Part shown: piece after piece, positions 14,470 through 53,927 of the stretch | How positions within the stretch are numbered: position 1 is the stretch's first letter | Layout of the letters: each line of letters starts with the position of its first letter | Assembly: GCA_003525905.1 (NCBI GenBank) | Contig: DQIA01000057.1 | Span: forward strand, 5,026 to 59,487 | DNA from: Clostridiales bacterium | GTDB lineage: Bacteria; Bacillota; Clostridia; Oscillospirales; Oscillospiraceae | Direction: 5' to 3' | DNA length: 54,462 nucleotides | Position numbers and translations under genes: made by a program | The notes under the pieces: generated by a model | Database searches by the model: none | The model's input: only the letters and a program-made list of their open reading frames with translations | Told to the model about the DNA's origin: nothing

Positions 14470-15591
14470 TTATTTCGTGGCCCACGTTCCCGTTGCGGCG
14501 CAGGTGAGGTAGGCGTTGATGAAGCCGTCGAGGTCGCCGTCCATCACGGCGTTGACGTTCGTGCTCTCAAAGCCCGTGCGGGTATCCTTCACAAGGGTAT
14601 AGGGCATGAAGACGTAGGAGCGGATCTGGCTGCCCCACTCGATCTTCTGCTGCACGCCCTTGATGTCGGAAATTTTCTCGAGGTGCTCGCGCTCCTTGAT
14701 CTCGATGAGCTTCGAGCGCAGCATGCGCATACACGTTTCCTTGTTCTGGAACTGGTCGCGCTGCGTCTGGCAGGAGACGACGATGCCGGTCGGCTTATGG
14801 ATGAGGCGGACGGCGGAGGACGTCTTGTTGATGTGCTGGCCGCCTGCGCCGGACGAGCGGTAGACCTGCATTTCGATGTCCTCGGGGCGAATTTCGACCT
14901 CGACGTCGTCCGGGATCTCCGGGATGACCTCCACGGCGGAGAACGACGTGTGGCGGCGGCCCGCCGCGTCGAACGGCGAGACGCGCACGAGGCGGTGCAC
15001 GCCGGCCTCGCCCTTCAGGAAGCCGTAGGCGTTGTCGCCCTCGATCATGATGTCCGCCGACTTCAGGCCGGCTTCGTCGCCGTCGAGATAGTCGAGAATT
15101 TTATAGGTAAAGCCGTGTGCCTCGGCCCAGCGGGTATACATGCGGTAGAGCATGGCGCACCAATCCTGCGCCTCCGTGCCGCCCGCGCCCGCGTGGAAGG
15201 ACAGCAGCGCGTTGTTCGCGTCATATTCGCCCGTCAGCAGGGTCTCCAGACGGGCCTCCTCCATGTCGGCCTCGAGCTTGGCATAGCCCGCCGTCAGCTC
15301 CTCGAGCATGGAGTCGTCGTTTTCCTCCAGCGCCATTTCGCAGATGGTCATCAGGTCGTCCCATTCGCTGCACATGGACTGGAACTTGTCGCGCTTGCGC
15401 TCGAGCGTCTTCGTGCGCATGACGGCCTTCTGCGAGCGCGCGGGGTCGTCCCAGAAGCCGGGGGCCTCCGCCATGGCGTGCAGGCGCTCCAGCTCATCAA
15501 GCAGGCTCTGCGGCACAAAGGCGGCGCGCAGCTCCTCAAGCTTCGGCTTCAGGTCGTTCAGTTTGCTCTTATATTCTTCAAATTCGATCAT
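14470..15591 (-). CDS. prfB: Peptide chain release factor 2
   Basis: A 373-residue RF2 that terminates translation at UGA and UAA. The SPF recognition tripeptide (VRVSPFDAAG) and the catalytic GGQ loop (SSGAGGQHINKTSSAVR) are intact. Most bacterial prfB genes need a +1 programmed frameshift near codon 25 at CTTTGA; here the frame is continuous from ATG 15591 and the corresponding position reads CTTTGTG, so the autoregulatory in-frame stop is absent. GGAG lies about 10 nt upstream. It has its own promoter and ends 12 nt before the secG promoter. Confidence 0.95.
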   Translation of the reverse strand: MIEFEEYKSKLNDLKPKLEELRAAFVPQSLLDELERLHAMAEAPGFWDDPARSQKAVMRTKTLERKRDKFQSMCSEWDDLMTICEMALEENDDSMLEELTAGYAKLEADMEEARLETLLTGEYDANNALLSFHAGAGGTEAQDWCAMLYRMYTRWAEAHGFTYKILDYLDGDEAGLKSADIMIEGDNAYGFLKGEAGVHRLVRVSPFDAAGRRHTSFSAVEVIPEIPDDVEVEIRPEDIEMQVYRSSGAGGQHINKTSSAVRLIHKPTGIVVSCQTQRDQFQNKETCMRMLRSKLIEIKEREHLEKISDIKGVQQKIEWGSQIRSYVFMPYTLVKDTRTGFESTNVNAVMDGDLDGFINAYLTCAATGTWATK

Positions 15592-15671: not shown

Positions 15672-15752
15672 TCAGCGCGTGCTGATCTCATATTCCACGT
15701 CTGCGAAGATCAGATCGTCCACGTCTCCGCACACCTGCTCCCACCATGGCAT
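15672..15752 (-). CDS. Possible small protein (26 residues)
   Basis: A short acidic frame, MPWWEQVCGDVDDLIFADVE followed by six more residues, preceded by an unusually good ribosome site (GGGAGGGAGGG) 2-8 nt before the ATG at 15752. It lies upstream of prfB in the same orientation. I do not recognise a family. It has two tryptophans, one cysteine and a strongly acidic centre. The good ribosome site and the lack of any other gene here are the only support; it could be fortuitous. Confidence 0.35.
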   Translation of the reverse strand: MPWWEQVCGDVDDLIFADVEYEISTR

Positions 15753-15841
15753 GGCCCTCCCTCCCTTCCGCCTTTTGACGCTCAGGCCTCCCATTGTATG
15801 CGTCCGGAAGGGAAAAATCGCGCGACTTTTGGCGCTGCCTC

Positions 15842-15870
15842 TTGACATTTTTTCAAAAAACCGCTAAGAT
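15842..15870 (+). promoter_or_regulatory. Promoter of the interrupted tRNA-Arg gene
   Basis: Consensus -35 TTGACA (15842-15847), 17-nt spacer, -10 TAAGAT (15865-15870). Transcription would start near 15877, about 12 nt before the tRNA. After integration of the element the next terminator downstream is at 16066-16100, so this host promoter should read through the tRNA 5' half into the complete tRNA carried by the element. Confidence 0.75.
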
Positions 15871-15888
15871 GATTCGGTAAATACACAT

Positions 15889-15928
15889 GTCCCAGTAGCT
15901 CAGCTGGATAGAGCACACGCCTCCTAAG
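15889..15928 (+). pseudogene. 5' half of host tRNA-Arg(CCU), split by the element
   Basis: Forty nucleotides read as tRNA positions 1-39: acceptor GTCCCAG, D-arm GCTC...GAGC, 5' anticodon stem CACGC, anticodon loop CTCCTAA (anticodon CCT at 15923-15925) and one G. The sequence then diverges into the element. The matching 3' half, with perfectly complementary acceptor (CTGGGAC) and anticodon stem (GCGTG), is at 53883-53927. Joined through the shared CTCCTAAG they give a normal 77-nt tRNA with encoded CCA. As it stands this half cannot make a functional tRNA. Confidence 0.92.
15921..15928 (+). other. attL core (CTCCTAAG)
   Basis: Left copy of the 8-bp attachment core, formed by the anticodon loop and first 3' stem base of the host tRNA. 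The flanks of the two copies differ (GC before and AGAACC after here; GAA before and CGTGG after at attR), so the identity is limited to these 8 bp. Confidence 0.85.
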
Positions 15929-15980
15929 AGAACCAAGAGCGTTCCCCGCCAGAGGGGCGGTCGCCCTTAAAATTAAATAT

Positions 15981-16057
15981 GCGCCAGTAGCTCAGTTGGA
16001 TAGAGCGTCCGCCTCCTAAGCGGAAGGTCGGGGATTCGAGTTCCTTCTGGCGCGCCA
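15981..16057 (+). tRNA. tRNA-Arg(CCU) carried by the element
   Basis: A complete 77-nt tRNA with encoded CCA. Acceptor GCGCCAG/CTGGCGC, D-arm GCTC/GAGC, anticodon stem TCCGC/GCGGA with loop CTCCTAA (anticodon CCT at 16015-16017), T-stem GGGGA/TCCTT with loop TTCGAGT, discriminator G and CCA. By hand alignment it differs from the reconstructed host tRNA at 16 of 77 positions. All changes in stems are paired compensatory changes, the mark of a functional but diverged gene. It decodes AGG. It has no obvious promoter of its own but lies downstream of the host tRNA promoter, with a terminator following. Confidence 0.95.
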
Positions 16058-16065
16058 CAAACAAC

Positions 16066-16104
16066 GCCGAAAGCCTTTGTTTTCAAGGGTTTTCGGCTTT
16101 CCTT
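16066..16104 (+). terminator. Terminator after the element tRNA
   Basis: Stem GCCGAAA...CCTT (16066-16077) pairs with AAGG...TTTCGGC (16085-16097), followed by a TTTCCTTATTT run. Confidence 0.75.
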
Positions 16105-16126
16105 ATTTGCTGCTGTGTTTGGCTGC

Positions 16127-16318
16127 TTGCTAATTGCTAATCGCAGGATTTGCATTTCGTGTTCAAGACCAATCACCTTTTTCTTATTTCCACAGCTGGC
16201 ATTTTGCTAATACGCACCGCATTATCGACGGCATTTTCATTCGGTTTTCAGCCCGTTTGCTAATACGGTGCGTTTTGCTAATTTGCTCTCTGCTAATAAA
16301 ATCAGGTGTTATTAGCAA
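16127..16318 (+). repeat. Left cluster of TTGCTAATA repeats (putative integrase arm sites)
   Basis: Between the tRNA and the integrase stop, the nonamer TTGCTAATA or a one-base variant recurs at 16127, 16134, 16204, 16257, 16275 and 16290. An inverted copy (TTATTAGCAA) lies at 16309-16318, inside the last codons of the integrase gene. Two related copies in inverted orientation lie near the right end (53723-53760). Clustered short repeats next to both attachment cores fit arm-type binding sites of a tyrosine integrase. Confidence 0.65.
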
Positions 16319-17684
16319 GCTGGACAGGCTCCAAAGCCTTTTTGAGTAGTTCAGGATTGCTGGCAAGCAGGCTCGCAAGAGCTTCTGCATCAAGTGCGGG
16401 TGCGGCAGTAACGGGTGCTTCTTCTGTCTTGCCTTTGTAAAAGGATTGCTCCATCTCATCAGCAAGGCGACGGCGATCCTCGTCAAGAATGTGCGCATAG
16501 CGCTTGGTCACCATATCGGGAGAGTTCCATCCGCCATCACCCTGTACCGCTTTTAGATCGCCCTTGGAGAGCCGAAGTTTTACGCCCGTACTCGTATGCC
16601 GTAAACTGTGAAACACGACATTATCGACATTGATTGTCGGGTCGTTCAGACCAATAAGGACTTCCTTGAATCGTTTATTCAGATGCTCGGTCATAATCGG
16701 TCGGCCGTTGGCTTGGCAGATAATCAGGCCATAATCCATATAGCCGTCGTCGCCAAGCTCCAGTTTCAGCTTCATTTGCATCTCTCTGAGCTTTTCGAGC
16801 TTCTTTGCAACGGTTTCGGGAATGTAGACAGTACGAATACTGCCCTCCGTTTTCGGCTGCTTTAAGACAATCACCGTCCGTGTGCCCGGATAGAGGTTTG
16901 GAAAGCGGAAAAGGATGTCCATTTTGGGTAGCTTTTCAATCAGTTTCTTATCAACACGGTCAATCACACGGTCGATGTATAGCACCTGATCACTCCGGCT
17001 AAAGCGCTCCCACTGCGTTCCACCGACCTCACCGCCGCGCATACAACAAGCAAACGCCAGTTGTATCGCACAGTGCATCACATATAAGTCGTAGATGTCG
17101 GTGCGGTCGGTAAAGTCCAATACTCTTTGCAGTTGTTCGGGAGTCAAGGCATCCCGTTTAGCCTCCTTGTGCTCCGGCAGTGTCGCATCCAAAAACGGAT
17201 TTTTCGCAATGTACTCCCACTTTTTCGCCTGATTGAAAGCACATCGCAGAACCTTGTGGATGTCATGAATGGTTGAGGGGCTGATATGCTCCCGCTTTGG
17301 TTTGCCCATATTGGTTGCCGGCTCTGCTTCGTTCAACAGAAAATGATAAAAGTCATCGACGGTCTTGGTGCGGATGCTGCGAAGTTTTTTGTCGCCCCAA
17401 TAGGGATGGACATAATTTTCAAGCAAGCCTACATTTCCGTCATAGGTTGATGCCACCCATTTTTTCTCACCGTATTTTTCGATGAACTCATACAAGAACT
17501 CGCTTACGGTAATATCATTGTGATCCACATGGGTGTTCTGTTCTTTCTCATATTCAATCGTTGCTTTGCGGGATTTGGCTGCCGAATAGCTCAGCCCCGA
17601 TTCCCATACCTGATGACGATTTGAACCCTCGCCCTCATAATAAACGACAGAATATGTTTTGCCTCTCTTTACGATTGAAGCCAT
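16302..17684 (-). CDS. int: Tyrosine-type site-specific integrase
   Basis: A 460-residue tyrosine recombinase. The N-terminal 60 residues form an AP2-like arm-binding domain (IVKRGKTYSVVYYEGEG), then a SAM-like core-binding domain (about 65-180). The catalytic domain has Arg in CCMRGGEVGG, HSLRHTS, GGWNSPD (Trp in place of the second His) and the nucleophile in TKRYAHI. It should catalyse integration at the anticodon loop core and, with Xis, excision. ATG 17684 has GGAGG 8 nt upstream and gives the MASIVKRG start; the frame extends to 17726 within xis. Its start adjoins the xis stop. The last codons overlap a TTGCTAATA repeat. Confidence 0.93.
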   Translation of the reverse strand: MASIVKRGKTYSVVYYEGEGSNRHQVWESGLSYSAAKSRKATIEYEKEQNTHVDHNDITVSEFLYEFIEKYGEKKWVASTYDGNVGLLENYVHPYWGDKKLRSIRTKTVDDFYHFLLNEAEPATNMGKPKREHISPSTIHDIHKVLRCAFNQAKKWEYIAKNPFLDATLPEHKEAKRDALTPEQLQRVLDFTDRTDIYDLYVMHCAIQLAFACCMRGGEVGGTQWERFSRSDQVLYIDRVIDRVDKKLIEKLPKMDILFRFPNLYPGTRTVIVLKQPKTEGSIRTVYIPETVAKKLEKLREMQMKLKLELGDDGYMDYGLIICQANGRPIMTEHLNKRFKEVLIGLNDPTINVDNVVFHSLRHTSTGVKLRLSKGDLKAVQGDGGWNSPDMVTKRYAHILDEDRRRLADEMEQSFYKGKTEEAPVTAAPALDAEALASLLASNPELLKKALEPVQLANNT

Positions 17685-17685
17685 A

Positions 17686-17901
17686 TCAAATACCTCCGTT
17701 ATCTGTGATATTATCAAGCCACTCATCGAAAGAGAGTTTTGAAATTCTTATGGTTCTGCCGATACGGACGATTTTGAACTCTCCCGAATTGCACAGTTCA
17801 TATGCTTTTCTACGCCCGATATTCAGTATGGAGCGTATCTCATCGACAGAGTATGTCCGTTTTCCGACAGAGTATTTCGGTACAATCTGTTCCAACCACA
17901 T
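17686..17901 (-). CDS. xis: Excisionase-type helix-turn-helix protein
   Basis: A 71-residue MerR-like excisionase domain: YSVDEIRSILNIGRRKAYELCNSGEFKIVRIGRTIRISKLSFDEWL matches the DNA-binding fold of Tn916-type Xis proteins. It probably bends DNA at the element ends and directs excision. ATG 17901 is preferred; AAAGGAGTT ends directly before it, which is a short spacing. The longer frame to 17985 runs into the promoter. It lies 1 bp before int, in the same transcript. Confidence 0.85.
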   Translation of the reverse strand: MWLEQIVPKYSVGKRTYSVDEIRSILNIGRRKAYELCNSGEFKIVRIGRTIRISKLSFDEWLDNITDNGGI

Positions 17902-18668: not shown

Positions 18669-19120
18669 AGTATTTTGAAGAAAATCTATTTGTCCTCGAC
18701 ACCCCGATTTTCTATTGGGAAGTCATCAAGCGGCCGATGGCTGTCGGCTCCACGGGAATTTCACCCTCACGAGGTTCTCTCGCAACCGCCCCCATTGCCT
18801 GCGACGGCTTCACGGTCGAAATGCCGCTTATCACGCTCGGACTGTGGCTGGACGGGAGTATCGTTAGCCCTATTGCCGGTCGTCGCCGGGGCGGGAGCCA
18901 CCCGCCCGTGATAGCCGACTGTTTCTCGCTCCCCGCAATGCGGATTATGGCGCAGCCGCTAATGTGGCTCATGCTTTCGCAATGGCAATAGGAATGTGCT
19001 TGATGAATGGTTATTCGGTTGTCAAAGATCATCCCTGCTTGCCGAAAAGGAAAACAGGCAGAGAGTTTTCGTACCTCTCCACCTGTTTCCTCACTTAAAG
19101 GCTATTTGTGTAGTCTGAAC
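18669..19120. other. Region without a convincing gene
   Basis: About 450 bp between the short frame upstream of the toxin gene and the sigma factor. Open frames on the plus strand (18675-18911, 18737-18991) have no ribosome site and proline/serine-rich translations with no recognisable family. No tRNA, promoter or long repeat is evident. A small RNA or untranslated leader is possible but unsupported. Confidence 0.45.
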
Positions 19121-29450: not shown

Positions 29451-31796
29451 TTAAGATGCGTTTCCGCTGCCGAACACACCCTCGCCGGGGCGCGTCGTCA
29501 TCAAACGGTAAAGCTCGGTATCTTTGGGAAAACGGTTGATAAACGGCACCAGCGCCGAGCCGTACTTGATCAGCCCACAGCCCGCATCGGCGTTGGTGAC
29601 ATAGCTCATCTGTTCGTCAGAGATGTTCAGGAGTTTTGAGAGCTTGGCACGGTCGGAAAACGCCTGATTGAGCATGACCACAAACTCGGAGTTGGAGAGC
29701 ATCGTGCTTGCCTGCACGGAATCCAGCAGGTATTCCACATTCTGCGTGATGGCGGTGGGATAGCCGTTGCGCTTACGGAACTGCCGCCATGCGGAATTGA
29801 AGAAAATGCCGCTCTGCTCATTTTCAAAAACGACATGAAATTCGTCGATGAAGATGTGGGTGCGCTTGCCCTTCTTCCAGTTGAGAGTGACACGGTTGAG
29901 GATGGTGTCGGTGATCACCAGCAGTCCCGTCGGCTTCAACTGCTCGCCAAGGCCGTGAATATCGAATACGACGATGCGCTTGTCGAGATCGACGGTGCTT
30001 TCGTGGCCGAAAATATCCAGTGAGCCGGTGGTGAACAGCTCCAGCGACAAGGCGATTTCTTTTGCCTTTTCTTCGGGCTGTTCCAACAGCTTGTTTCGCA
30101 GGTCACAGAGCGTAGCGGGCTTACCCGTCCGCTCGGCGTCCTGATACACCAGCGCCGTGCAGCGGTCGATGATGGATTTTTGCTGCGGGCCGACACCAGC
30201 CTTATCGATCTGCTCCACAAGGGACATGATGAACTGCGATTTCTCCACGATGGGGTTGTTCTCGCCGTAGCCGTCCACCATATACATGGCGTTCAAACGG
30301 TCTTTGCCGCCAGCCGCCATATGAATGACGGTCGCCGTTTCCTTACCCAGCGCCGCCGCCAGCGCACCAAATTCGTTTTCCGGATCGCAGATCAACACAT
30401 CATCGGCGGTATTGAGAATGAGAAAAGCGATCAGCTCCTTGGCGCTGAACGATTTGCCCGAACCGGGCACGCCCAGCAGAAACGCCGACTGGTTCAGAAG
30501 ATTTGCTTTGTTGCACATGATGAGGTTGTGGGAGATGGCGTTCTCTCCGAAGTAAATGCCGCCCTTGTCCTGCACCTCCTGCACCTTAAAGGGCATGAAC
30601 ACCGCAAGGCTTTCGGTGGTAAGGGTGCGGAACGCATTGATCTTCCGTGTGCCGATGGGAAGGACAGTGTTCAGCCCATCGAACTGTTGGAATTTCAGCA
30701 CGGCAAGCTGGCACATATGCTTTCGTGCCACGGCAAGCAGCGTTTCAGTATCGCTGTCGAGCTGATTTTTGTCGTCGGCAGTAATGACCATTGTAATGAC
30801 CGCCAGCATCATCCGCTGATCTCTCGTGGTCAGATCGTCCAGAAACTCCTTGCTCTCCTTGCGCTGGAGCTCCATATCGTAGGGCACGACGGCAGAGAAA
30901 TTGTTGTTGGCGTTCTGCCTGCGCTGCCAGTTGGTGATGTTGGTTTCGATGCCGAGCAGACGGTTCTCCACCTCCCGCACGGCCTCGTCGGTGGGGATCG
31001 GCACAACATCGATCGACAGCATCATATTTCGGTTGAAATCGGTCAGCTCCGTGACCATACTGTCTTTGATATACGAAGCGTAGTCTTTCAGAAACAAGAC
31101 CCTGCAGTATTTTTCGCCCAGCTTCAGACAGTCGCTGCTTTTCTCCAAAGAGTCGGGGCAGATATAGTCCTTGAAATCATGCCCCTTGCGCATCATGTCC
31201 TGCGGGTCAAAGTGAAACGCCGCTTCCTCGCCCTGACGGTAAAAGTCGTGGAGCACCCGCGGCTTTTCGGCGGCGTCCAGCTCGGTACACTTGGAGCCGA
31301 GGGCGGCGAAATGGGCGATCAGGTCGGCGCCGATCCGGGCAAAGTAGGTGCGGGCTTCTTCGATGTCCTTCTTGCAGACCGACACCGTGATATATTTCTC
31401 CTGAACGATGCCGTTGGCGCCGGTGGCCTTGTCCAACAGCATTTGATTGTATTCTCTGCGGTACACATCGCAGGCGTCGCCCCGCATGGGCATCAAGATC
31501 GACTGCTCGAAATTTGCCCGGTTCAGCCTGCGGTTGTTAATGGTGATCTTCGTCGTTGCCCCGGAATCCAGACTGTTCAGCAGCTCCGAGTAGGCAAGAA
31601 ACATCTGCTCCTTGTCCTCACGGCTTGCCACAAGGTAGTTGATGTCGGTGAACTGATAGGTTTTGGAAAAGCGGCCGCCCACCTGAAAAATACCGTCCTT
31701 CCAGATGCGGCGGACGGGGATCACATCCTGTACCTTGCGGGGCACGGTGTACCGCTCCTTGTCCTGTTTCAGCAGGTTTTTCAGCGTTTTGATCAT
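29451..31796 (-). CDS. VirB4-type conjugation ATPase
   Basis: A 781-residue AAA+ ATPase that powers the type IV secretion channel. The N-terminal 400 residues match TraE/VirB4 (DVIPVRRIWKDGIFQVGGRFSKTYQF). Walker A is GVPGSGKS at about residue 440 and Walker B is IFIDEFH at about 645. The length is typical of Tn1549-like VirB4. The start overlaps the PrgI gene by 4 nt, and the gene is followed by sortase. Confidence 0.93.
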   Translation of the reverse strand: MIKTLKNLLKQDKERYTVPRKVQDVIPVRRIWKDGIFQVGGRFSKTYQFTDINYLVASREDKEQMFLAYSELLNSLDSGATTKITINNRRLNRANFEQSILMPMRGDACDVYRREYNQMLLDKATGANGIVQEKYITVSVCKKDIEEARTYFARIGADLIAHFAALGSKCTELDAAEKPRVLHDFYRQGEEAAFHFDPQDMMRKGHDFKDYICPDSLEKSSDCLKLGEKYCRVLFLKDYASYIKDSMVTELTDFNRNMMLSIDVVPIPTDEAVREVENRLLGIETNITNWQRRQNANNNFSAVVPYDMELQRKESKEFLDDLTTRDQRMMLAVITMVITADDKNQLDSDTETLLAVARKHMCQLAVLKFQQFDGLNTVLPIGTRKINAFRTLTTESLAVFMPFKVQEVQDKGGIYFGENAISHNLIMCNKANLLNQSAFLLGVPGSGKSFSAKELIAFLILNTADDVLICDPENEFGALAAALGKETATVIHMAAGGKDRLNAMYMVDGYGENNPIVEKSQFIMSLVEQIDKAGVGPQQKSIIDRCTALVYQDAERTGKPATLCDLRNKLLEQPEEKAKEIALSLELFTTGSLDIFGHESTVDLDKRIVVFDIHGLGEQLKPTGLLVITDTILNRVTLNWKKGKRTHIFIDEFHVVFENEQSGIFFNSAWRQFRKRNGYPTAITQNVEYLLDSVQASTMLSNSEFVVMLNQAFSDRAKLSKLLNISDEQMSYVTNADAGCGLIKYGSALVPFINRFPKDTELYRLMTTRPGEGVFGSGNAS

Positions 31797-34202: not shown

Positions 34203-35984
34203 TTAAAAAAGAGCTTCTATATCCTCGTCGGAAAGAAGCTCATAATCGGGTATGGGTTCATTGGGTGCGGGTACGGTTTCGGCGGCAGCGCCTGCAAATG
34301 AGAGCGTCGCAATGGCATTTTCCGTCCCGCCGTGTTCATAAGGTGCTGCGCCGCCGTCCTCGGTCAGTGCAATGTTCGGGTGTTTCAGAATGTCGTATTT
34401 CTCGTCCATCACTGGACGCTCACCACGGATAAACAAAAGGGCGTAACGGTTGTCCAGCATACGCACTTCGTCCGGCGTCAGAAGCTCTCTGCCGCTGATC
34501 TGATAGTTCGTGCTGTAATTGCCGTTTCGCCCGGATGATTTGCCGTAGGTGTTGGTGTCGATGGTGGATTTGCCGAGGTAGGATTCCGAGATCAGCTTGT
34601 GGGTCGATGTTTCGTTGCCGCCGAGATAAAGGAACTCGTCGCAGTTGCCGAGGATCGACTCCCATTCCTTTTCAAACAGCGCTTTGAGCGCCGCCACATT
34701 TTGCAGAATGATGGACACATACACATTGCGGGAGCGCATGACCGCAAGGATCTTGGAGAAATCCTCCGGCAGGCTGACATTGCTGAACTCGTCCATTAGG
34801 AAGTGAACGGGAACGGGCAGACTGCCGCCGTATTTGTGGTCGGCCAGATAGAATAGCTGCTGAAAAAGCTGCGTGTACAAAATGCTGACCAAAAAGTTAA
34901 AGCTGGTATCATTGTCGGGGATCAGGGCAAAGAGCGCCACTTTCTTTTCGCCGAGGGACGGCAGATCCAGCTCATCCGTAGCGGTCAGCGCCGCCAACGA
35001 GGACAGATTGAATTTCTCTAACCTTGCCGCCAAAGTGATCTGAATGGATTTCAGTGTTTTGGCGCTGCCGGAGTGGTAGTCCTTGTAATACTTCACGGCA
35101 ATATGGTCGGGCTCCCGCATTTCCAGCCGTTCAAACAGCTCGTCCAGCGGCGAGGTGTATTCGTCGCAGTCCTCCCGCACATCCGCCGCACGCAACATTT
35201 CCATGACCATTGGAAAGTTCTGCTCGTCGGGTGGCGCTTCGTATTTCAGATAGAAGATCAGCGCCAGCAGGAGCATAGACGCGGCGGTGTCCCAAAAGGG
35301 ATCGTTGGACTGGCTGCCTTTCGGCGTGGTGCTTTTGAACAGATTGGTCACAAGCCGCTGCACATCGTTGTCGTCCCGCAGGTAAACAAACGGGTTGTAG
35401 CAGTGGCTTTTCTCCATGTTTAGAAGATCCAGCACCCGCACCTCATAGCCCTTTAGCCGCAGCAGATGCCCCGTGCTGCGCAGCAGCTCGCCCTTCGGGT
35501 CCAGCACGGTAAAGCTCGTGTTGGCTTGACACAAATTCGGTTTGGCGTAAAACCTCGTTTTGCCTGCGCCGCTGCCGCCGACAACGACCGTGTTGAGGTT
35601 GCGGCGGTGTTTTCGTCCGTCCAGACCCATACGGACATTCTGCGTGAAGATCTTGTTGTCCTCTGGTGCGGCTGCCCGGTATTTTCGGTTGACGGTTCGG
35701 GCAGAGCCCCACTTGGCCGAACCGTGTTCCTCGCCCCGACGGTAATTGCGGCGGGAAGATAGAATCACACCCACCGTAAGCCCGTAGGCACAGAGCAAAA
35801 CAATGACAGTTTTCAGGCTGTCCCCGCAAAGCTCGATATGAAACGGGTCGTTCATTACCGCAGGAAACCGGGCGACAATCTCCGGCAGACCGCCGTGGGC
35901 GGCGGGGGCGATCAGCAGCCCCAGCCACACCACGGGGAGAATACCGAACAGGCAGAGGATAAGAGGGTTATTCTCTTTCTTCAT
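34203..35984 (-). CDS. VirD4/TraG-type coupling protein
   Basis: A 593-residue ATPase that brings the relaxase-DNA complex to the channel. Two transmembrane helices (about 9-27 and 58-76) are followed by Walker A GGSGAGKT at 136-143, TVLDPKGELLRSTG, and Walker B around HFLMDEFSNV. The TraG-type GRELLTPDEVRMLDN motif is near the C-terminus. Length is typical. It overlaps the small gene before it by 17 bp. Confidence 0.93.
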   Translation of the reverse strand: MKKENNPLILCLFGILPVVWLGLLIAPAAHGGLPEIVARFPAVMNDPFHIELCGDSLKTVIVLLCAYGLTVGVILSSRRNYRRGEEHGSAKWGSARTVNRKYRAAAPEDNKIFTQNVRMGLDGRKHRRNLNTVVVGGSGAGKTRFYAKPNLCQANTSFTVLDPKGELLRSTGHLLRLKGYEVRVLDLLNMEKSHCYNPFVYLRDDNDVQRLVTNLFKSTTPKGSQSNDPFWDTAASMLLLALIFYLKYEAPPDEQNFPMVMEMLRAADVREDCDEYTSPLDELFERLEMREPDHIAVKYYKDYHSGSAKTLKSIQITLAARLEKFNLSSLAALTATDELDLPSLGEKKVALFALIPDNDTSFNFLVSILYTQLFQQLFYLADHKYGGSLPVPVHFLMDEFSNVSLPEDFSKILAVMRSRNVYVSIILQNVAALKALFEKEWESILGNCDEFLYLGGNETSTHKLISESYLGKSTIDTNTYGKSSGRNGNYSTNYQISGRELLTPDEVRMLDNRYALLFIRGERPVMDEKYDILKHPNIALTEDGGAAPYEHGGTENAIATLSFAGAAAETVPAPNEPIPDYELLSDEDIEALF

Positions 35985-37054: not shown

Positions 37055-37858
37055 TTATCGCTCCTTTGCTTTCTTCGGTTTCTTTCGGGAAGGCTGCTTG
37101 TGGGTGGTGGTCTGCTGCTTTTTCGGTTCTTTTGCCGGGGTGGGTTCGGAAATGCCCGGCTCTGCCGCCTCTTTCTGCCTGCTCTCCCGGATTTCCCGTA
37201 ATTCCTCACGGACAGAGGGGCGTTCTTCGGGAGATTTAGCAGTACCCTCGGCGGTTCTGCTTTGCTTCTCGGAGGTAGGCGCGGACGGACGGGATTTCTC
37301 CGTCTTTGCCGCCGCAGGGTTTGGGGATGCGTGTTCCTCCTTTTGAATGGGTGCGCCCAGCAGGTCATCCAGCAGGCGGTCATCCGCCGCCTTGTCGGGC
37401 TTCTCCTGCTCAGGGGCAGACGAGGCGGTTTTGTCCGCCTTGGACTGTTCAATGTCCCGCTTGATGGAAACGGTATCGACCGTCGCCAGCTTGAACCGCT
37501 CTACGATGCGGTTGATCTTGGACGCATCCTCGGCACGCACCATAATGTCTACCATACCGTCAGCAGAGCGCTCTTTGCCCCGCAGGGCACAGTAGACAAC
37601 GCCGTACCGCTTGGCCTCGGTCGCAAACTGCTTCAGATGCTCTTCGCTGACGGTGAACACTTTCAGCTCCTTGCCGCTTTTGAGCATGGCAGAGAGCCGC
37701 TGGTGGCCTTTGGTTTTGTTCTTATCTCGGTTTTTCCAGACAGCGTAGAGCATGGCGGCGATATTCTTTGCCGCCGAGCCGGTCAGCTTCAAGGCAACTT
37801 CCGTACCCTCCAAGCTGATCCGCACGACTTGCTCCGCTGCGTCACCGGAATTGTACAT
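37055..37858 (-). CDS. PcfB family relaxosome protein (DUF3801)
   Basis: A 267-residue protein. The N-terminal 135 residues are the PcfB domain (GDAAEQVVRISLEGTEVALKLTGSAAKNIAAML, LKVFTVSEEHLKQFATEAKRYGVVY). The rest is a hydrophilic, Lys/Glu/Pro-rich tail, probably disordered. In pCF10, PcfB helps link the relaxosome to the coupling protein. ATG 37858 has GGAG 9 nt upstream. It overlaps the relaxase gene by 17 bp. Confidence 0.87.
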   Translation of the reverse strand: MYNSGDAAEQVVRISLEGTEVALKLTGSAAKNIAAMLYAVWKNRDKNKTKGHQRLSAMLKSGKELKVFTVSEEHLKQFATEAKRYGVVYCALRGKERSADGMVDIMVRAEDASKINRIVERFKLATVDTVSIKRDIEQSKADKTASSAPEQEKPDKAADDRLLDDLLGAPIQKEEHASPNPAAAKTEKSRPSAPTSEKQSRTAEGTAKSPEERPSVREELREIRESRQKEAAEPGISEPTPAKEPKKQQTTTHKQPSRKKPKKAKER

Positions 37859-39263
37859 GGTCGGTTTTCTCCTTTCTTTCGGGTTGCTCGTCCTCACGGA
37901 CGGCTTTGATTTTCTCTTGGATTACGCCGGAACGCTCAGCAATGCTGTTACATAGAACCACCTCCTTCCGCAGTGCGGCAAGTTCTTTGGAAAGTGCGGT
38001 GATCTGCGCTTTGACCTCCGCCGTCTTTTCAGGGTCAGACTTCACCGCTGCCGTCCGCTGTGCTTTATAAAGCTGTTTGCGCTTCTCGGTCAGAGCGGTG
38101 ATTTTTTCGCTTACCTTATCCCGGTAGCAAAAAAGCTGCTCGGCGGTATCGATCCGATGTCCTATAAGCAGCCTTGTTTCGGCGGTGATGGCGTCCAGCT
38201 TCAACAGATCCTCCCGCAAGAGAAAGTGCTGCCGTTTTCTGCTTTGCTGCGGGCGGTTCTTCGGGAAGATGCCCAGCAGATAGCAGTAGTGAACATACAG
38301 CGCCCGAAAGCCGGTCAGTTTTCGGGCGGCTTTCAGATTGCCGATCAGTCTGACCCGCAGGATCTCCGGCTTTTGTTCGGGCTTTTTCCGTTCGGGGCGG
38401 CTCTGGGATAAAATGCGTCTGCGGATGCTGTCCAGTGAGTAGTCCTCACCGAAATTACGCATCAGGCGCACAAACCGCTCCTTGCCCGGCGGCCTGACCG
38501 AAATATCTTTGCCGACCTTCACCGCATAGCCCTTTTTCCGCAAAGCGTCAAAAAACTGCCGCTCGGTCATGGCTTGCCGTATCGCCTCGTCAATGTCTGC
38601 ACGGATCAGCCCACGCCAAGTGGGACGCTGTTCCTGCTCGGCACGCCATTCGCCGTATTGCTTGCCTTGACCTTGCTGTGGATGCTCGATCACCGACAGT
38701 CCGTATTCCCGGCAAAGCTCATCGGAAACCGTCTGCATTTCGTGATAGTCCTTTCGGGTACGGTGGTATTTGATGCCGTCCGCAAAGGATACGGTGTTGA
38801 CGACAAAGTGATTGTGCAGATGATTTTCTTTGTCAAGGTGGGTGGCGACGATCACCTGATAGCGGTCGCCCCATAGCCGGGTCGCCAGCTTTACGCCGAT
38901 CTCATGCGCCAGTTCGGGCGTGGCCTCGCCGGGGGCAAAGGACTGATAGCCGTGGTAGGCCACCGTGCCGTCCTCCTTGCCGAACCGCTTTTTCACGGCA
39001 AGCATTTCGTCACGGGCGGTGGCAGGAGAGCAGTTGATACCCGACGCAAAACGATGAACCACTGCGCAGTCCTCGTTATCCGCTTTCTGCGTTTTTCGGG
39101 AATTGACCGCATAGCGGATAACATCGGAAAGCTCCTGTCCGTCCTGTTCGGCCATATCTTTATCGGTAAAAAATTTCGGGTTCGTCGTTTTATCTGGATT
39201 TTCTACATATACAACCACCTTGCCGAGCCAGCCTTTCACACGCCAGATTGATGTCGTCGCCAT
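37842..39263 (-). CDS. Relaxase (MOBP-type mobilization nuclease)
   Basis: A 473-residue relaxase of the pfam03432 type. The metal-binding histidine triad is visible in THLDKENHLHNHFVVNTV at about residue 145-160, after HGYQSFAPGEATPELAHEIG. The C-terminal 200 residues are helical and charged. It should nick oriT and pilot the single strand into the recipient. Its start overlaps the MobC stop by 1 nt. No unambiguous oriT was found; candidate non-coding regions are 42850-43250 and 53560-53880. Confidence 0.92.
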   Translation of the reverse strand: MATTSIWRVKGWLGKVVVYVENPDKTTNPKFFTDKDMAEQDGQELSDVIRYAVNSRKTQKADNEDCAVVHRFASGINCSPATARDEMLAVKKRFGKEDGTVAYHGYQSFAPGEATPELAHEIGVKLATRLWGDRYQVIVATHLDKENHLHNHFVVNTVSFADGIKYHRTRKDYHEMQTVSDELCREYGLSVIEHPQQGQGKQYGEWRAEQEQRPTWRGLIRADIDEAIRQAMTERQFFDALRKKGYAVKVGKDISVRPPGKERFVRLMRNFGEDYSLDSIRRRILSQSRPERKKPEQKPEILRVRLIGNLKAARKLTGFRALYVHYCYLLGIFPKNRPQQSRKRQHFLLREDLLKLDAITAETRLLIGHRIDTAEQLFCYRDKVSEKITALTEKRKQLYKAQRTAAVKSDPEKTAEVKAQITALSKELAALRKEVVLCNSIAERSGVIQEKIKAVREDEQPERKEKTDHVQFR

Positions 39264-46648: not shown

Positions 46649-46738
46649 TTACTTCTTCTTGGCTCTGATCTTCAGGAAGATCAAAGCGCCGACGATAAAT
46701 ACGACCAGTCCGATCGCCAGAATGGTTTTCAGCTCCAT
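46649..46738 (-). CDS. Small membrane protein (29 residues)
   Basis: MELKTILAIGLVVFIVGALI followed by a short Lys-rich tail: one transmembrane helix with a basic cytoplasmic end. The ATG at 46738 overlaps the stop of the giant surface protein (TAATG), so it is translationally coupled to it. No separate ribosome site is needed. The role is unknown; it could help secretion or anchoring of the surface protein. Confidence 0.6.
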   Translation of the reverse strand: MELKTILAIGLVVFIVGALIFLKIRAKKK

Positions 46739-49700
46739 TACTCCGCGTCCTCCTTTCTGCGTTTTCTGAATCCGACCACGCCCAGCGTGGCAGCGCCCGC
46801 AGCGGAAACGCCAAGCAGGGCAAGCCAGCGGGCGGGGTTGCTGTCATCCCCGGTTTTCGGCGTGTCACGAAGCTCGTTGTGCATCTCCACTTTCGTCACC
46901 GCACCTTCAAACACGGATGCCGTCTTGTCGGCGGGCAGCACATAGGCGGAAGATGCGCCGTCCGACACCTCGGACACCACATACTCACCAATGCGGAGAT
47001 TTTCGATGATGATCTCGCCGTTTTTGTCGGTAGTGAATACGCCGACATATCCGTTCGGTCCGGTGACACGGAACGAGAAGCCCTCAATTTTGCCGTTCGA
47101 GGAAGTCTTGATGATTTTCAGAGAGCCGACCTGCGGCGCATTGACAAAGCCCTTTCCGGCCTCGTTCTCCACGGTCACAGCCTTTCCGTCCTCGGTGATC
47201 TCGAAATAGTAGGCGTTATCGTCCAAATAGAAGCCCTCCGGCGCTTTCGTTTCTTTGACATAATAGCCGCCGTAGAGCAAATCGGACATTTCATAAACGC
47301 CGATGCCGGTTTCGGTGAGCGTACCGAGCAGTTCATCGTCGGCATCCAGCGCCTTGTTTCCGTTGCTGTCACGGTAAACGGCAAATTCCGCACCGGACAG
47401 CTTGTTGTCGGGATAGTCCTTATCGACTTTCGTGAGTTGCACCGTACCGCGGATGCGGGTGTTTTCGATTTCAACCTCAATGACTGCGCCGTCCTTATCC
47501 ACCGTCACGGCAAAGGTTTCATCCGACAGCACAAAGCCGGTCGGGGCTTCGATCTCCCGCACGATCCAGTTACCATAAGGCACACGGGCAAAAGAAAAGC
47601 TGCCGTCCTCGGCAGAGGTGGCAGTCAGAATGGCGGTTTCGCTCGTAAATTCGGTGCAGTCCGCACGGAACAGCCCGATCAGCGCACCGGCAAGACCGCT
47701 GCCGTCCTCGTCCTTTTTCAGTCCGTGGATCTCGCCGTAGAGCAGCTTGTTTTCGATGAGTGCGCCACCGTTTGCCTTGATGTCCACCAGCGCCGTGTCC
47801 TGCCCGGCGTAGTCAAAGACGATGGGGTACTTCTCATCGGAGAGGATATAGTGTCCATCGGTGGAAAGCTCTTTGAGATAGTAGCTGCCAAACGGCAAAT
47901 CGGTTTTGCAGACGGCGTGACCGTTCTCGTCCACCGAGAGGATTTCAAGCAGACCGTCCGCAGGAATGATGCTGCCGTCCGCGGCGGTCAGATCCTCGGC
48001 AGCGAACAGACCAAAGGTCACGGCGGTGATCTCGCCGTTCATGCCAATGCCGAATTGCTCATTCTGCTCCAAGACCTTATCCAGCGAAACGGCGGCTTTT
48101 TGCCGTTCGTTGCAGAAGTCGGCGGCGGTTTCGGTGATCTCGACCTCCTGCCCGGCATAGACAAGCTCTGCCGTGTGGACTTCGGTATTCAGTACATAGC
48201 CGGTGGGGGCTGTGATCTCCCTGACCTCGTATTTGCCGAGATACAGCGGCTTGCTTTCGGCAAGTCCCGTTTCATCGGTGGTCACGGTATCAACGACCTC
48301 TCCGGCCGCATAGCGGAGCGTGCCGTCCGGCGTGATGATGTCCTCGGCAGCGGTGATCTCATAGACTGCGCCCGCAAGCCCCTTGACCGCAAACACCGGC
48401 TGGTAGATGCTGTCCGCCTCGGTGACGGAAGAAAAGGCCTCGCCGCTCTTGCTGATCCGGATCACGCCCTTTTGCGCCGTGTTCGGTTTCATGACCTCGA
48501 CCACCGTAACGGCGTTTTCCTCCGTGGCATTGTCGGCGGTCACATCAAAATATACAGGTTCGCCGCTGAGCGTGTAGCCGTAGGGCGCAGAAACCTCGAC
48601 CAGCGAATAGCCCTTGCCGTACTCCAGCTTTTCGGGCGTAATGAGATAGCCCTCGCTGTTCGTGTAGAATGTGTCGATGGTGGTCACTTCGGGATAGGTG
48701 AAGGTCTGCGTGATGAGCGACCCGTCCGGGCGGTAAAGCCGGAAGCCTGCGTCTGCCAGCGGAATGACCTTGCTTGTTTCAGCGTCCACCTTGACGATCT
48801 TGATATAGCTTTCAAAATTGCGGTTGTTTGCAAGGTAGCGATAGGTCTGCCCGTCCTTGGCGATATACACATCGAAATCGGCAAGCAGCTCACGGCCGTC
48901 CCAACCCTTGGCCTGATGCACCGTGTAGATGCCGTAGGGCAGGTCTTTTGTGGCCGCATAGCCGTTTTCATCACAGGTCAGATAGTCACGCTCGGATGCC
49001 TTGGCGTTGTCATAAGAGCCTGCGGCTTTCAGGAAAACCGCAAACTCCGCTCCGGCCTCCGGTGTTTCAAGCTGCGTTTCGCCGTCGTCGGTGTGCTTGA
49101 TGATGGCGATTCTGCCCTTGATGATCTGCTCGGTCACATCGTTTGCCGTGGTGTTGTATTCCACGGCATAGTTCTTCGCCTCTGCGCCAATGGGATAAAC
49201 GCTGCTGTCCAGCAGATAGCCCTCCGAGGGCGTGATCTCACGGATGGTCCAGTCGTCCCCGCAGACATAGTATTTTGTAGTGAACTGCCCGTTGGCGTCG
49301 GTGGTGTAGGTGTCTACAAGCTGGTCGCCCTTATAGATGCCGTAGACGGCACCGGCAAGAGTGGCGTCACCCTGCGGCAGACCCATTTCGGCATCGCTCT
49401 TGGTGACAGTGACATTCCACTTTTTCAGAATGTTCGTGAAGCTCTTGTTCGTGACGGTGTTCCATTCCACCGCCGCCGTCTGATTTGCGGGGACGACATA
49501 GCGGATCGCCGTATCAACTTCCTCCAGCGTGTAGCCTGTGCCGATCAGCACATCAGAAAATACGGCTTTGCCTGCGCTGTCGGTCACGGCGTATTCATCC
49601 ACCGCAAGCCCTGAAAGCGAAGTGCCGTAGAGGTGGAATTTCACGCCCTCGTTCAAGCCGTCCTCGGAGGTCTTGGTCACGATGAGCGTGCCGCGCTTCA

Positions 49701-50964
49701 AGGTATTATTGAAATTGACCGTTGTCACCTGACCGCTGACGACGGTGACACGGCGCACCTCCTGTGGTTCATATTTGTCGTAGTTCTGCTCGGTGACGGT
49801 GTAAACGCCGGGGGCAAGGTTGTCGATCTGAATGATACCGCCTGCGCCCGTCGTAACGGTCTTGTTCACACCGTTGCCGGTGATCGTAAAGGAAATGCCC
49901 TCTACCTTGCCGTCCTCGCTGGTCTTGACGATTTTGGCACTGCCGTAGCTGACCTTGATGTTCAGATAGCCCTTTACGGGATCGTTCACCGTCTGCGCAT
50001 AGGTGACGGTATCTTGCAGCTTTCCGTTCGGGCCGTAAACGCCGTCCGTCCAAGTGATCACGCCGCGCCGCTGAGAATTTCTCTTTTCGGCTGTGATCGT
50101 TACTGTGTCAGCGGGAGCTGTATCTGCTGTAATGGTCAGCTTGTTTCCGTTTACGGAAAAACGAATCCCCGGAACACTTGCGGAAAACAGGTAATCGGAA
50201 AGGACATTGTTTGTATCGGTAAGTGTGGCAGTGTACTTTTCGCCGTCCCATGCAAGCTCGATATTCTGCGCTTTTCCTGCGGATTTGGAAAAGAAGCTCG
50301 GCACTTTGGAATGCTTCTGTACGCTTGCCGCAATGGAATCGCAGTAGCTCATGATTTGGCTGTACAGCGGGTGGCTTGTGCAGATCTGCTCCGTGATGGC
50401 GTTTTTGCCTCCCGTACTTACCTTGCCAAAGTCAGCGTCACGCTCACCGACGACGGTTTCCCAGATCAGAAGCTGCGTGGCGACCGCATGAGCCAGCTTG
50501 TCGCCGCCCTCGTTCTGCGAACGCCAAGAGGTCGAGATCGTCCCCGTATAGCCGTACTGAAAGATACGGCCGATGAACAGCTTAATATCATCGGGCGAAA
50601 TCGTGCTGTTGTAAAACGACGGATAGTAGTCCCAGAAATCCTCGCCCTTTTTCGTAAAGGTGTTGCCCGTCTGCTGCGGCACGCCGGGTTCGATGCAGTA
50701 GCAGATATTGCCCTCATACGACCCCATTGCTCGGATCGTCGTAAAACGGGATGTTGCCGTAGACCAGCCGTTCATAAAGCTCAGGCTGTTGTGTCCCCAT
50801 TCGCCGCCGTAGTTAGCGTCGCCGTCACGGGGATAGGAGATAAGATATACTTCGTCGGTTTCTTCTGCGGCAAATGCGGTCGTTCCCATGCCAAACAGCG
50901 TGGTAACGCACATCAGCATCGCAAGAAACAGCGACAGCGTTCGTTTGAATTTCTGCGTTTTCAT
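46738..50964 (-). CDS. Giant surface adhesin: thioester domain, SpaA/CnaB repeats, TPKTG anchor
   Basis: A 1408-residue wall-anchored protein. A signal peptide (1-32, cleavage after AFA) is followed by a thioester domain with Cys90 in YCIEPG and Gln164 in TQLLIW, the pair that forms the internal thioester. From about residue 340, roughly a dozen SpaA/CnaB-like beta domains follow, recognisable by repeated G(T/K)YTVTE, GYxL and LPYGxYxVxE motifs and Lys-containing starts such as KIVKTSEDG. The C-terminus has the sorting motif TPKTG (1368-1372), a hydrophobic helix and an RKRRK tail. It likely forms a stiff fibre that binds covalently to a target surface. The class B sortase of the element is the likely anchoring enzyme. 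Confidence 0.93.
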   Translation of the reverse strand: MKTQKFKRTLSLFLAMLMCVTTLFGMGTTAFAAEETDEVYLISYPRDGDANYGGEWGHNSLSFMNGWSTATSRFTTIRAMGSYEGNICYCIEPGVPQQTGNTFTKKGEDFWDYYPSFYNSTISPDDIKLFIGRIFQYGYTGTISTSWRSQNEGGDKLAHAVATQLLIWETVVGERDADFGKVSTGGKNAITEQICTSHPLYSQIMSYCDSIAASVQKHSKVPSFFSKSAGKAQNIELAWDGEKYTATLTDTNNVLSDYLFSASVPGIRFSVNGNKLTITADTAPADTVTITAEKRNSQRRGVITWTDGVYGPNGKLQDTVTYAQTVNDPVKGYLNIKVSYGSAKIVKTSEDGKVEGISFTITGNGVNKTVTTGAGGIIQIDNLAPGVYTVTEQNYDKYEPQEVRRVTVVSGQVTTVNFNNTLKRGTLIVTKTSEDGLNEGVKFHLYGTSLSGLAVDEYAVTDSAGKAVFSDVLIGTGYTLEEVDTAIRYVVPANQTAAVEWNTVTNKSFTNILKKWNVTVTKSDAEMGLPQGDATLAGAVYGIYKGDQLVDTYTTDANGQFTTKYYVCGDDWTIREITPSEGYLLDSSVYPIGAEAKNYAVEYNTTANDVTEQIIKGRIAIIKHTDDGETQLETPEAGAEFAVFLKAAGSYDNAKASERDYLTCDENGYAATKDLPYGIYTVHQAKGWDGRELLADFDVYIAKDGQTYRYLANNRNFESYIKIVKVDAETSKVIPLADAGFRLYRPDGSLITQTFTYPEVTTIDTFYTNSEGYLITPEKLEYGKGYSLVEVSAPYGYTLSGEPVYFDVTADNATEENAVTVVEVMKPNTAQKGVIRISKSGEAFSSVTEADSIYQPVFAVKGLAGAVYEITAAEDIITPDGTLRYAAGEVVDTVTTDETGLAESKPLYLGKYEVREITAPTGYVLNTEVHTAELVYAGQEVEITETAADFCNERQKAAVSLDKVLEQNEQFGIGMNGEITAVTFGLFAAEDLTAADGSIIPADGLLEILSVDENGHAVCKTDLPFGSYYLKELSTDGHYILSDEKYPIVFDYAGQDTALVDIKANGGALIENKLLYGEIHGLKKDEDGSGLAGALIGLFRADCTEFTSETAILTATSAEDGSFSFARVPYGNWIVREIEAPTGFVLSDETFAVTVDKDGAVIEVEIENTRIRGTVQLTKVDKDYPDNKLSGAEFAVYRDSNGNKALDADDELLGTLTETGIGVYEMSDLLYGGYYVKETKAPEGFYLDDNAYYFEITEDGKAVTVENEAGKGFVNAPQVGSLKIIKTSSNGKIEGFSFRVTGPNGYVGVFTTDKNGEIIIENLRIGEYVVSEVSDGASSAYVLPADKTASVFEGAVTKVEMHNELRDTPKTGDDSNPARWLALLGVSAAGAATLGVVGFRKRRKEDAE

Positions 50965-53882: not shown

Positions 53883-53927
53883 CTCCTAAGCGTGGGGTCG
53901 GGAGTTCGAATCTCTTCTGGGACGCCA
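53883..53927 (+). pseudogene. 3' half of host tRNA-Arg(CCU), with attR core
   Basis: The core CTCCTAAG (53883-53890) is followed by the rest of the anticodon stem (GCGTG), variable loop, T-arm (GGGAG, TTCGAAT, CTCTT), acceptor strand CTGGGAC, discriminator G and encoded CCA. It pairs exactly with the 5' half at 15889-15928, 38 kb away. Without its 5' half and promoter it cannot be a functional tRNA. Confidence 0.92.

What the first reader, a model, noticed from the sequence alone, without database searches (positions are those of the whole stretch)
15889..16057. A conjugative element that breaks tRNA-Arg(CCU) and brings a complete, diverged replacement tRNA
The host tRNA is cut in the anticodon loop: 5' half at 15889-15928, 3' half at 53883-53927, with perfect acceptor (GTCCCAG/CTGGGAC) and anticodon-stem complementarity across 38 kb. 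Only 52 nt inside the element is an intact tRNA-Arg with the same CCU anticodon. It differs at about 16 of 77 positions, and all stem differences are compensatory pairs, so it is an independent functional gene. Elements integrating in tRNA genes normally restore the gene by carrying an identical 3' or 5' segment; here a whole foreign isoacceptor appears to complement the loss. This is a distinct solution to tRNA disruption.
Basis: partly seen in the sequence, partly recalled or inferred. Interest (0 to 1): 0.93.

Follow-up and report, generated by a model that had tools for sequence, protein, structure and literature searches.

The report
Mobile elements that swap a tRNA
A predicted conjugative DNA element sits inside a bacterial tRNA gene, cutting it in two, and carries a whole, different tRNA of the same kind that likely takes over; in related bacteria up to four such cut genes line up in front of one whole copy.

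Summary
Observation confirmed. The host tRNA-Arg(CCU) is cut in the anticodon loop (15889-15928 and 53883-53927, 8-nt core CTCCTAAG). An intact tRNA-Arg(CCU), different at 16 of 77 positions, lies 52 nt inside the element. It is not a one-off. Of 14 integrase relatives found in genome contigs, 13 have such a tRNA beside the integrase (the 14th is cut by its contig end), 11 of them behind a broken 5' half. Spacer and tRNA travel together between hosts with different broken tRNAs, even between bacterial orders. The newcomer's tRNA is itself a target: of 41 loci with two or more tRNA 5' parts in a row (up to five), 37 have only the last intact; the other 4 are cut by contig ends. A promoter-like site precedes the ladder in 32 of 40 such loci, while short spacers have none (0 of 31), so the substitute is likely transcribed from the host tRNA's promoter. 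The principle, an integrating element that breaks a tRNA and supplies its own, is published: 'tRNA-dependent lysogeny' of actinobacteriophages (PMC10865867). New here: conjugative elements, Clostridia, promoter capture by position, serial replacement ladders. Expression and necessity of the tRNA are untested.

The parts
14470..15591 (-). host gene prfA (peptide chain release factor), chromosomal flank
   Evidence: Pfam PCRF and RF-1; the same neighbour of tRNA-Arg(CCU) in G002 (L007) and in kin loci L193, L194, L195, L197, L199, L200, L206
15842..15870 (+). host tRNA promoter-like site TTGACA-17-TAAGAT, predicted to read through the broken half into the element tRNA
   Evidence: only promoter-like site in 15700-16300
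15889..15928 (+). 5' half of the host tRNA-Arg(CCU), left junction (attL)
15921..15928 (+). core CTCCTAAG at the left junction
15929..15980 (+). 52-nt spacer (class A), element-derived, best promoter-like match 8 of 12
15981..16057 (+). complete element-borne tRNA-Arg(CCU); contains the same core at 16013-16020, hence a predicted new target
16066..16097 (+). terminator-like hairpin after the element tRNA
16302..17726 (-). tyrosine integrase
   Evidence: Pfam PF00589, 51 bits; HxLRH motif (motif recalled); 1023 related proteins at E<=1e-60 among the 7997 candidates scored
18021..18539 (-). MazF/PemK-like toxin gene of the element
   Evidence: pemK RNA at 18750-18867 minus strand
29451..31796 (-). 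VirB4-like conjugal transfer ATPase, CD1110 family
   Evidence: NCBIfam NF045971, 991.5 bits, cut-off 325
34203..35984 (-). VirD4-like coupling protein, CD1115 family
   Evidence: NCBIfam NF045973, 515.5 bits, cut-off 250
37842..39263 (-). MobA/VirD2-like relaxase
   Evidence: Pfam PF03432
51845..53555 (-). ParB and ParA genes near the right end
53883..53927 (+). 3' half of the host tRNA-Arg(CCU), right junction (attR); core at 53883-53890

Best explanation
A predicted conjugative element (15929-53890) lies inside the host's tRNA-Arg(CCU) gene, splitting it in the anticodon loop, and holds 52 nt inside its left end a complete, diverged tRNA-Arg(CCU) that likely replaces the lost tRNA and is predicted to be transcribed from the host tRNA's own promoter. 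Shown by sequence: the two halves, the 8-nt core, the intact tRNA, the integrase beside it, the same spacer-plus-tRNA cassette in other hosts with other broken tRNAs, and ladders of broken halves ending in one intact tRNA. Inferred: a tyrosine recombinase exchanges at CTCCTAAG; read-through from the host promoter passes the broken half and spacer; RNase P and the downstream terminator give the mature tRNA; because the new tRNA carries the same core, the next element inserts into it and substitutes its own. Needing only the core to match, not the whole 3' half, would let the element use hosts whose tRNA-Arg differs.
For: (1) Of 14 integrase relatives in genome contigs (some are partial matches), 13 have an intact tRNA-Arg(cct) beside the integrase (the 14th, L018, is cut by its contig end); 11 of 13 have one or two broken 5' halves in front, one (L019) a decayed half, one (L014) none. 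(2) Junction halves pair 12/12 in 13 of 13 elements; mismatched pairings 4 of 156. (3) Among 29 rung pairs with spacers differing by at most 4 nt, the tRNA behind the spacer has an identical 5' part in 22, while the broken half in front differs in 28 (the pairs share loci and are not independent). (4) Element DNA 93.5% identical over 3164 nt in Caproicibacter fermentans (Acutalibacteraceae, Eubacteriales) and Eisenbergiella porci (Lachnospiraceae, Lachnospirales), with different broken tRNAs. (5) 41 loci with two or more rungs: last rung intact in 37, the other 4 end 14-123 nt after the last core; 0 of 56 inner rungs intact. (6) 34 element tRNAs of the 77-nt kind (26 distinct): 99.6% of stem cells paired, 14 of 21 pairs with changes on both sides. 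(7) Promoter-like site (9 of 12 or better) within 160 nt upstream of the first rung in 32 of 40 ladder loci (mononucleotide shuffles 0.25) and 37 of 45 single-rung loci (0.14), and in 11 of 12 class A loci; 0 of 31 class A, C, D, E spacers. (8) The same prfA-side locus has one intact tRNA behind a promoter-like site and no integrase in five kin loci (L193, L194, L197, L199, L206).
Against: No expression or fitness data. A UCU-anticodon tRNA was seen in 10 of 13 carrier genomes and may read AGG, so loss of CCU might be tolerated. Two carriers hold a second intact tRNA-Arg(cct) on another contig: G003 (L083) and G339 (L087), of 20 genomes with an intact element tRNA; the search for further copies was by pattern and incomplete. 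Chance alone would give only about 2 promoter-like sites in the 31 short spacers, so their absence is weak evidence, and the upstream stretches scanned were longer than the spacers. Seven of 17 class B spacers hold a promoter-like site of their own, so host-promoter capture is not universal. In three rung pairs (L013, L148, L157) of 56 the broken half and the next rung have identical 5' parts. No whole genome is held for the window, so a second CCU gene there could not be looked for.
Confidence: 0.8

Rival explanations
1. The intact tRNA is a codon-supply cargo of the element, or a passenger; losing the host CCU tRNA is harmless because tRNA-Arg(UCU) reads AGG.
For: AGG is rare: 3 of 116 Arg codons in three chromosomal ORFs, 29 of 435 in 17 element ORFs; a UCU-anticodon tRNA was seen in 10 of 13 genomes; two carriers have a second intact CCU gene.
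Against: Every untruncated ladder (37 of 37) closes with one intact tRNA of the broken isotype, none of 56 inner rungs is intact, and the 4 single rungs that are not intact are cut by contig ends; stem pairing is kept by double changes. A dispensable tRNA should sometimes be missing.
Confidence: 0.14
2. The host had two tandem tRNA-Arg(CCU) genes and the element entered the upstream one, so the intact tRNA is host DNA.
For: Broken half and intact gene are only 52 nt apart, like a tandem pair.
Against: The 3' half of the broken gene lies 38 kb away, beyond the element; the intact tRNA with its spacer recurs beside related integrases in hosts with other tRNAs; kin loci beside prfA have a single gene.
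Confidence: 0.03
3. The element tRNA is expressed from a promoter of the element rather than from the host tRNA promoter.
For: In class B, 7 of 17 spacers have a promoter-like site, two at 11 of 12.
Against: The window's class A spacer has none at 9 of 12; its right end, which precedes the tRNA in the circular form, scores 8 of 12.
Confidence: 0.2
4. The two host halves are transcribed apart and joined in trans, a split tRNA.
For: Both halves keep perfect complementarity across 38 kb.
Against: That is expected of a fresh insertion; in G013 the half has decayed while the element tRNA stays (by eye). No splicing motif was looked for.
Confidence: 0.01

Closest known systems
tRNA-dependent lysogeny of actinobacteriophages such as Fionnbharth, LeBron and Gaia (PMC10865867; abstract, introduction, results up to the secondary attB sites, sections 10 and 11 read; the section on Cluster L phages and the methods not read)
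   Same: Tyrosine integrase, attB over a host tRNA, core of 8-17 bp, no tRNA rebuilt, element tRNA of the same isotype but (Fionnbharth) not closely related to the host's.
   Different: Those are temperate phages, tested by deletion, and the Fionnbharth tRNA was shown to have its own promoter. Here: conjugative genes, Clostridia, tRNA placed 40-85 nt behind the broken half (one case 239 nt), mostly without a promoter-like site of its own, and serial ladders, which the parts I read do not mention.
S. meliloti prophage-related sequences that bring a foreign isoacceptor tRNA (PMC11476347; passages seen)
   Same: Host tRNA gene said to be substituted by one resembling those of unrelated species.
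   Different: Phage-related sequences of an alphaproteobacterium; I saw only passages.
Classical tRNA-targeting AICEs and phages (PMC3218068, passages seen; introduction of PMC10865867)
   Same: Tyrosine integrase, tRNA target, shared core.
   Different: Most AICEs with tyrosine integrases enter the 3' end of the tRNA, and typical phage cores of 30-45 bp rebuild it; here only 8 bp are shared and the tRNA stays broken.
Conjugative elements with CD1110/CD1115-family transfer proteins (NCBIfam NF045971, NF045973)
   Same: The window's VirB4-like and VirD4-like proteins pass these models' cut-offs.
   Different: The models say nothing about tRNA cargo.

Membership tests
tRNA-dependent lysogeny | Tyrosine integrase next to an att site in a host tRNA gene | tested here: met
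tRNA-dependent lysogeny | Short common core (about 10 bp), no functional tRNA rebuilt at either junction | tested here: met
   8-nt core; ARAGORN finds no tRNA at either junction
[quoted passage not shown]
   37 of 41 ladders end in an intact cct tRNA, the other 4 cut by contig ends
tRNA-dependent lysogeny | Element tRNA is required for viable integrants | not testable with these tools
   needs deletion or mini-element experiments
tRNA-dependent lysogeny | Carrier is a temperate phage | tested here: not met
   Relaxase, VirD4-like and VirB4-like genes. Of 10 element ORFs scanned with PHROGs none matched capsid, tail or portal; one terminase match is the VirB4-like ATPase and the endolysin matches are the CHAP protein. 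The other element ORFs were not scanned with PHROGs.
Integrative and conjugative element | Integrase, relaxase, coupling protein and VirB4-type ATPase between direct repeats | tested here: met
Integrative and conjugative element | Excision and conjugative transfer | not testable with these tools
   presence of a related element in two orders is indirect support
Classical tRNA-targeting element | Element segment rebuilds the interrupted tRNA | tested here: not met
   5' half continues into a spacer, not a 3' half

The most novel reading that the evidence does not exclude
In many Clostridia the tRNA-Arg(CCU) gene has become the property of a succession of mobile elements: each newcomer breaks the current tRNA, inherits the host promoter, installs its own tRNA, and thereby leaves the landing site for the next, so that the chromosome keeps a readable ladder of up to four successive insertions and may keep an element's tRNA for good after the element is gone.
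Probability: 0.6. Interest if true: 0.78.

Novelty: new variant of a known kind. Interest (0 to 1): 0.66.

Why it matters
It extends tRNA-dependent integration from actinobacteriophages, where it was discovered, to conjugative elements of Clostridia, and points to a house-keeping RNA gene being swapped over and over by horizontal transfer. It suggests why such elements can cross order boundaries: only eight bases in the anticodon loop would need to match. The ladders give ordered records of past insertions at one site, and the question left open in PMC10865867, how these systems relate to classical tRNA-rebuilding ones, becomes addressable by comparing spacers. It also warns annotators: the only intact tRNA of its kind in a genome may lie on a mobile element.

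Tried and rejected
Tandem host genes: rejected. Codon supply: AGG is slightly commoner in element ORFs than in three chromosomal ORFs (3.58 against 2.49 per 1000 codons); sample too small, no conclusion. Decayed 3' halves in spacers (an ancestral tRNA-rebuilding att site): of the distinct spacer starts listed, two reach z above 3.5 (L143, L025) and four lie at z 2.5-2.7; with so many tests it is a lead only, and the window's spacer shows nothing (z 0.0). IMG/VR scan for the integrase: 17 pattern stretches, none a relative. Subdoligranulum variabile record OY725843 (circular, labelled plasmid) has a left junction but no right one: unresolved. A tRNA beside prfA was not found in 11 more distant prfA loci (L060-L070, class of G001), nor a CCU rung in 11 of 20 prfA loci of the genus of G002. 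RNA fold of 15889-16100: the lowest-energy fold of the long transcript does not show the tRNA cloverleaf; not informative for a processed tRNA.

Absence from print rests on nine library searches of open-licence papers only; subscription papers are mostly missing.

Full report
OBSERVATION. The window holds one intact tRNA, tRNA-Arg(cct) at 15981-16057 (RF00005, 66.1 bits). At 15889-15928 stands the 5' half of another tRNA-Arg(CCU), at 53883-53927 its 3' half; all three share CTCCTAAG. Rejoining the flanks in a script gives a normal tRNA-Arg(cct). Host and element tRNA differ at 16 of 77 positions, with full pairing of the acceptor, anticodon and T stems in each.

THE ELEMENT. Beside the intact tRNA lies a tyrosine integrase (16302-17726, minus). 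The body encodes a relaxase, a VirB4-like ATPase and a VirD4-like coupling protein of the CD1110 and CD1115 families, a SpaA-type surface protein, a MazF-like toxin, and ParA/ParB at the right end. It is a predicted conjugative element of 37,962 bp.

RELATIVES. The integrase finds 14 loci in genome contigs; 13 have an intact tRNA-Arg(cct) right behind the integrase, 11 of these with one or two broken 5' halves in front. L019 shows a decayed half, and a TTGACA-17-TAAAAT can be read by eye further upstream (sequence; the 160-nt scan before the tRNA did not reach it and scored 6 of 12); L014 shows no half. Among 391 genomes of the class of G004, 10 had an integrase at E<=1e-60, eight of them 38-44% identical. 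Four of those eight (L022-L025) also show broken half plus intact tRNA. Two more (G165, G040) carry the integrase at the far junction and the tRNA at the other. For a further one (G131) the tRNA junction and the integrase-side junction lie on different contigs (L084, L090). The eighth (G178) shows no broken half beside its integrase and has an intact tRNA-Arg(cct) elsewhere (L080, L079). The integrases compared fall into groups 34-51% identical to one another.

JUNCTIONS. For 13 elements (window and 11 genomes, one of which has two) both junctions were found; the outer halves pair 12 of 12 in acceptor plus anticodon stem in all 13, against 4 of 156 mismatched pairings. For seven genomes the right half lies on another contig and was taken as the remaining unpaired 3' part of the same genome, so contiguity is assumed there; window, G001, G165, G040 and G307 have both junctions on one contig, as does G403 (about 69.6 kb apart; read by eye). 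G307 has a second copy of the same 3' half on another contig (L075).

MOBILITY OF THE CASSETTE. Identical or nearly identical spacers (at most 4 mismatches) form 29 rung pairs; the 5' part of the tRNA behind them is identical in 22 and differs at 1, 2 or 7 positions in seven, while the broken half in front differs in 28. Caproicibacter fermentans and Eisenbergiella porci, of different orders, share element DNA at 93.5% over 3164 nt.

LADDERS. In G131's family (87 genomes searched, 77 with a pattern match that may be only the UCU tRNA) I fetched 55 loci, one per genome, from the listed part of the hits: 20 have two or more rungs, 32 a single intact tRNA, 3 are cut by contig ends. Over all 97 loci given to the final parser, 86 had a rung (the 11 without were prfA loci of kin): 45 with one rung (41 intact, 4 cut), 30 with two, eight with three, two with four, one with five. 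In the 41 ladders the last rung is intact in 37; the other four end 14-123 nt after the last core. None of 56 inner rungs is intact. Rungs repeat mostly every 91-96 nt (30 of 56) or 123-125 nt (12 of 56). The simplest reading is nested insertion, each newcomer entering the tRNA of the last. In Eisenbergiella porci both 3' halves of a two-deep nest were found, on two other contigs (L073, L074).

EMPTY SITES. In the genus of G002 the tRNA can lie beside prfA as in the window. Of 20 fetched prfA loci, 11 show no CCU rung. Five show one intact tRNA behind a promoter-like site and no integrase within the stretch (L193, L194, L197, L199, L206); a sixth (L191) has an intact tRNA of the 75-nt kind (not tested for integrase). 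One (L195) has a class B spacer between broken half and intact tRNA, and one (L205) is cut. L200 has an intact tRNA that by eye differs at one position from the element tRNA of L015, with a similar terminator and no integrase; it may be a tRNA kept after element loss or the donor of the captured one.

EXPRESSION. A site of 9 of 12 or better lies within 160 nt upstream of the first rung in 69 of 85 loci: 32 of 40 ladders (mononucleotide shuffles 0.25) and 37 of 45 single-rung loci (0.14), and 11 of 12 class A ladders (one ladder, L008, had too little upstream sequence); the window has TTGACA-17-TAAGAT. Spacers of classes A, C, D and E have none (0 of 31; about 2 expected by chance), class B has one in 7 of 17, other spacers 0 of 7, and one 239-nt spacer has one. 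The right ends, which would precede the tRNA in the circle, score at most 9 of 12 in the 11 tested (three reach 9; shuffles reach 9 at rates of 0.08-0.36). So class A tRNAs are predicted to depend on the host promoter.

FUNCTION OF THE tRNA. 34 element tRNAs, 26 distinct, keep 99.6% of stem cells paired, with changes on both sides at 14 of 21 pairs; relatedness is only partly controlled. In the 13 genomes of the close relatives every CCU-anticodon match of the 5' pattern belonged to the integrase locus, but the pattern misses the 75-nt kind, and G003 has an intact tRNA of that kind elsewhere (L083); G339, among the more distant carriers, has a second intact 77-nt one (L087). That makes 2 of 20 carriers with a second copy found, in genomes that may be incomplete.

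KNOWN PRECEDENT. tRNA-dependent lysogeny (PMC10865867) describes the same logic in phages, with experiments. I read its abstract, introduction, results up to the secondary attB sites, and sections 10 and 11. It calls the relation to classical systems unclear and names Lj965 of Lactobacillus johnsonii as a possible case. PMC11476347 (passages) reports similar substitution in S. meliloti. Nothing on conjugative elements or ladders of this kind turned up in the listings of nine searches of the open library.

VERDICT. A real, recurrent system; new variant of a known kind. On checking, the confidence was lowered from 0.82 to 0.80 because a second carrier with another intact CCU gene (G339) was counted.

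Noticed in passing
L080 (G178:C39), about position 905: An integrase 34-41% identical to the others sits beside a tRNA-like stretch with CTCCTAAG in a loop closed (by eye) by a 7-bp stem, while G178 has an intact tRNA-Arg(cct) elsewhere (L079). Perhaps a decayed tRNA or an att decoy.
   Followed up: no
L208 (G403), L217 (G448): These class B elements have RepA_N, ParA (and in G403 ParB) genes at the tRNA end; in G165 the integrase lies at the far end, so the backbone seems turned round relative to class A. G430 (L216) has ORFs of like sizes there, not scanned.
   Followed up: partly
L013 (G008): Broken host half and element tRNA have identical 5' parts: possibly a recent capture of the host's own tRNA.
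   Followed up: no
OY725843.1 (L004, L221, L222), 37297-37443: A circular 75.8-kb record labelled plasmid carries a left junction with broken half and intact tRNA, but no right junction.
   Followed up: partly
window 18750-18867 minus strand: pemK cis-regulatory RNA (RF02913, 52.4 bits) next to the MazF/PemK-like toxin gene.
   Followed up: no
window 46738-50964: 1408-aa surface protein with ten SpaA stretches and a thioester domain as element cargo.
   Followed up: no
L005 (Clostridioides difficile record NZ_CP033217.1): 42 tRNA genes packed into about 4 kb of a linear record labelled plasmid.
   Followed up: no
L001, L003: Contigs labelled phage from human faecal samples carry complete tRNA-Arg(cct) genes of this kind, so some viral-contig sets may hold these elements.
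   Followed up: partly
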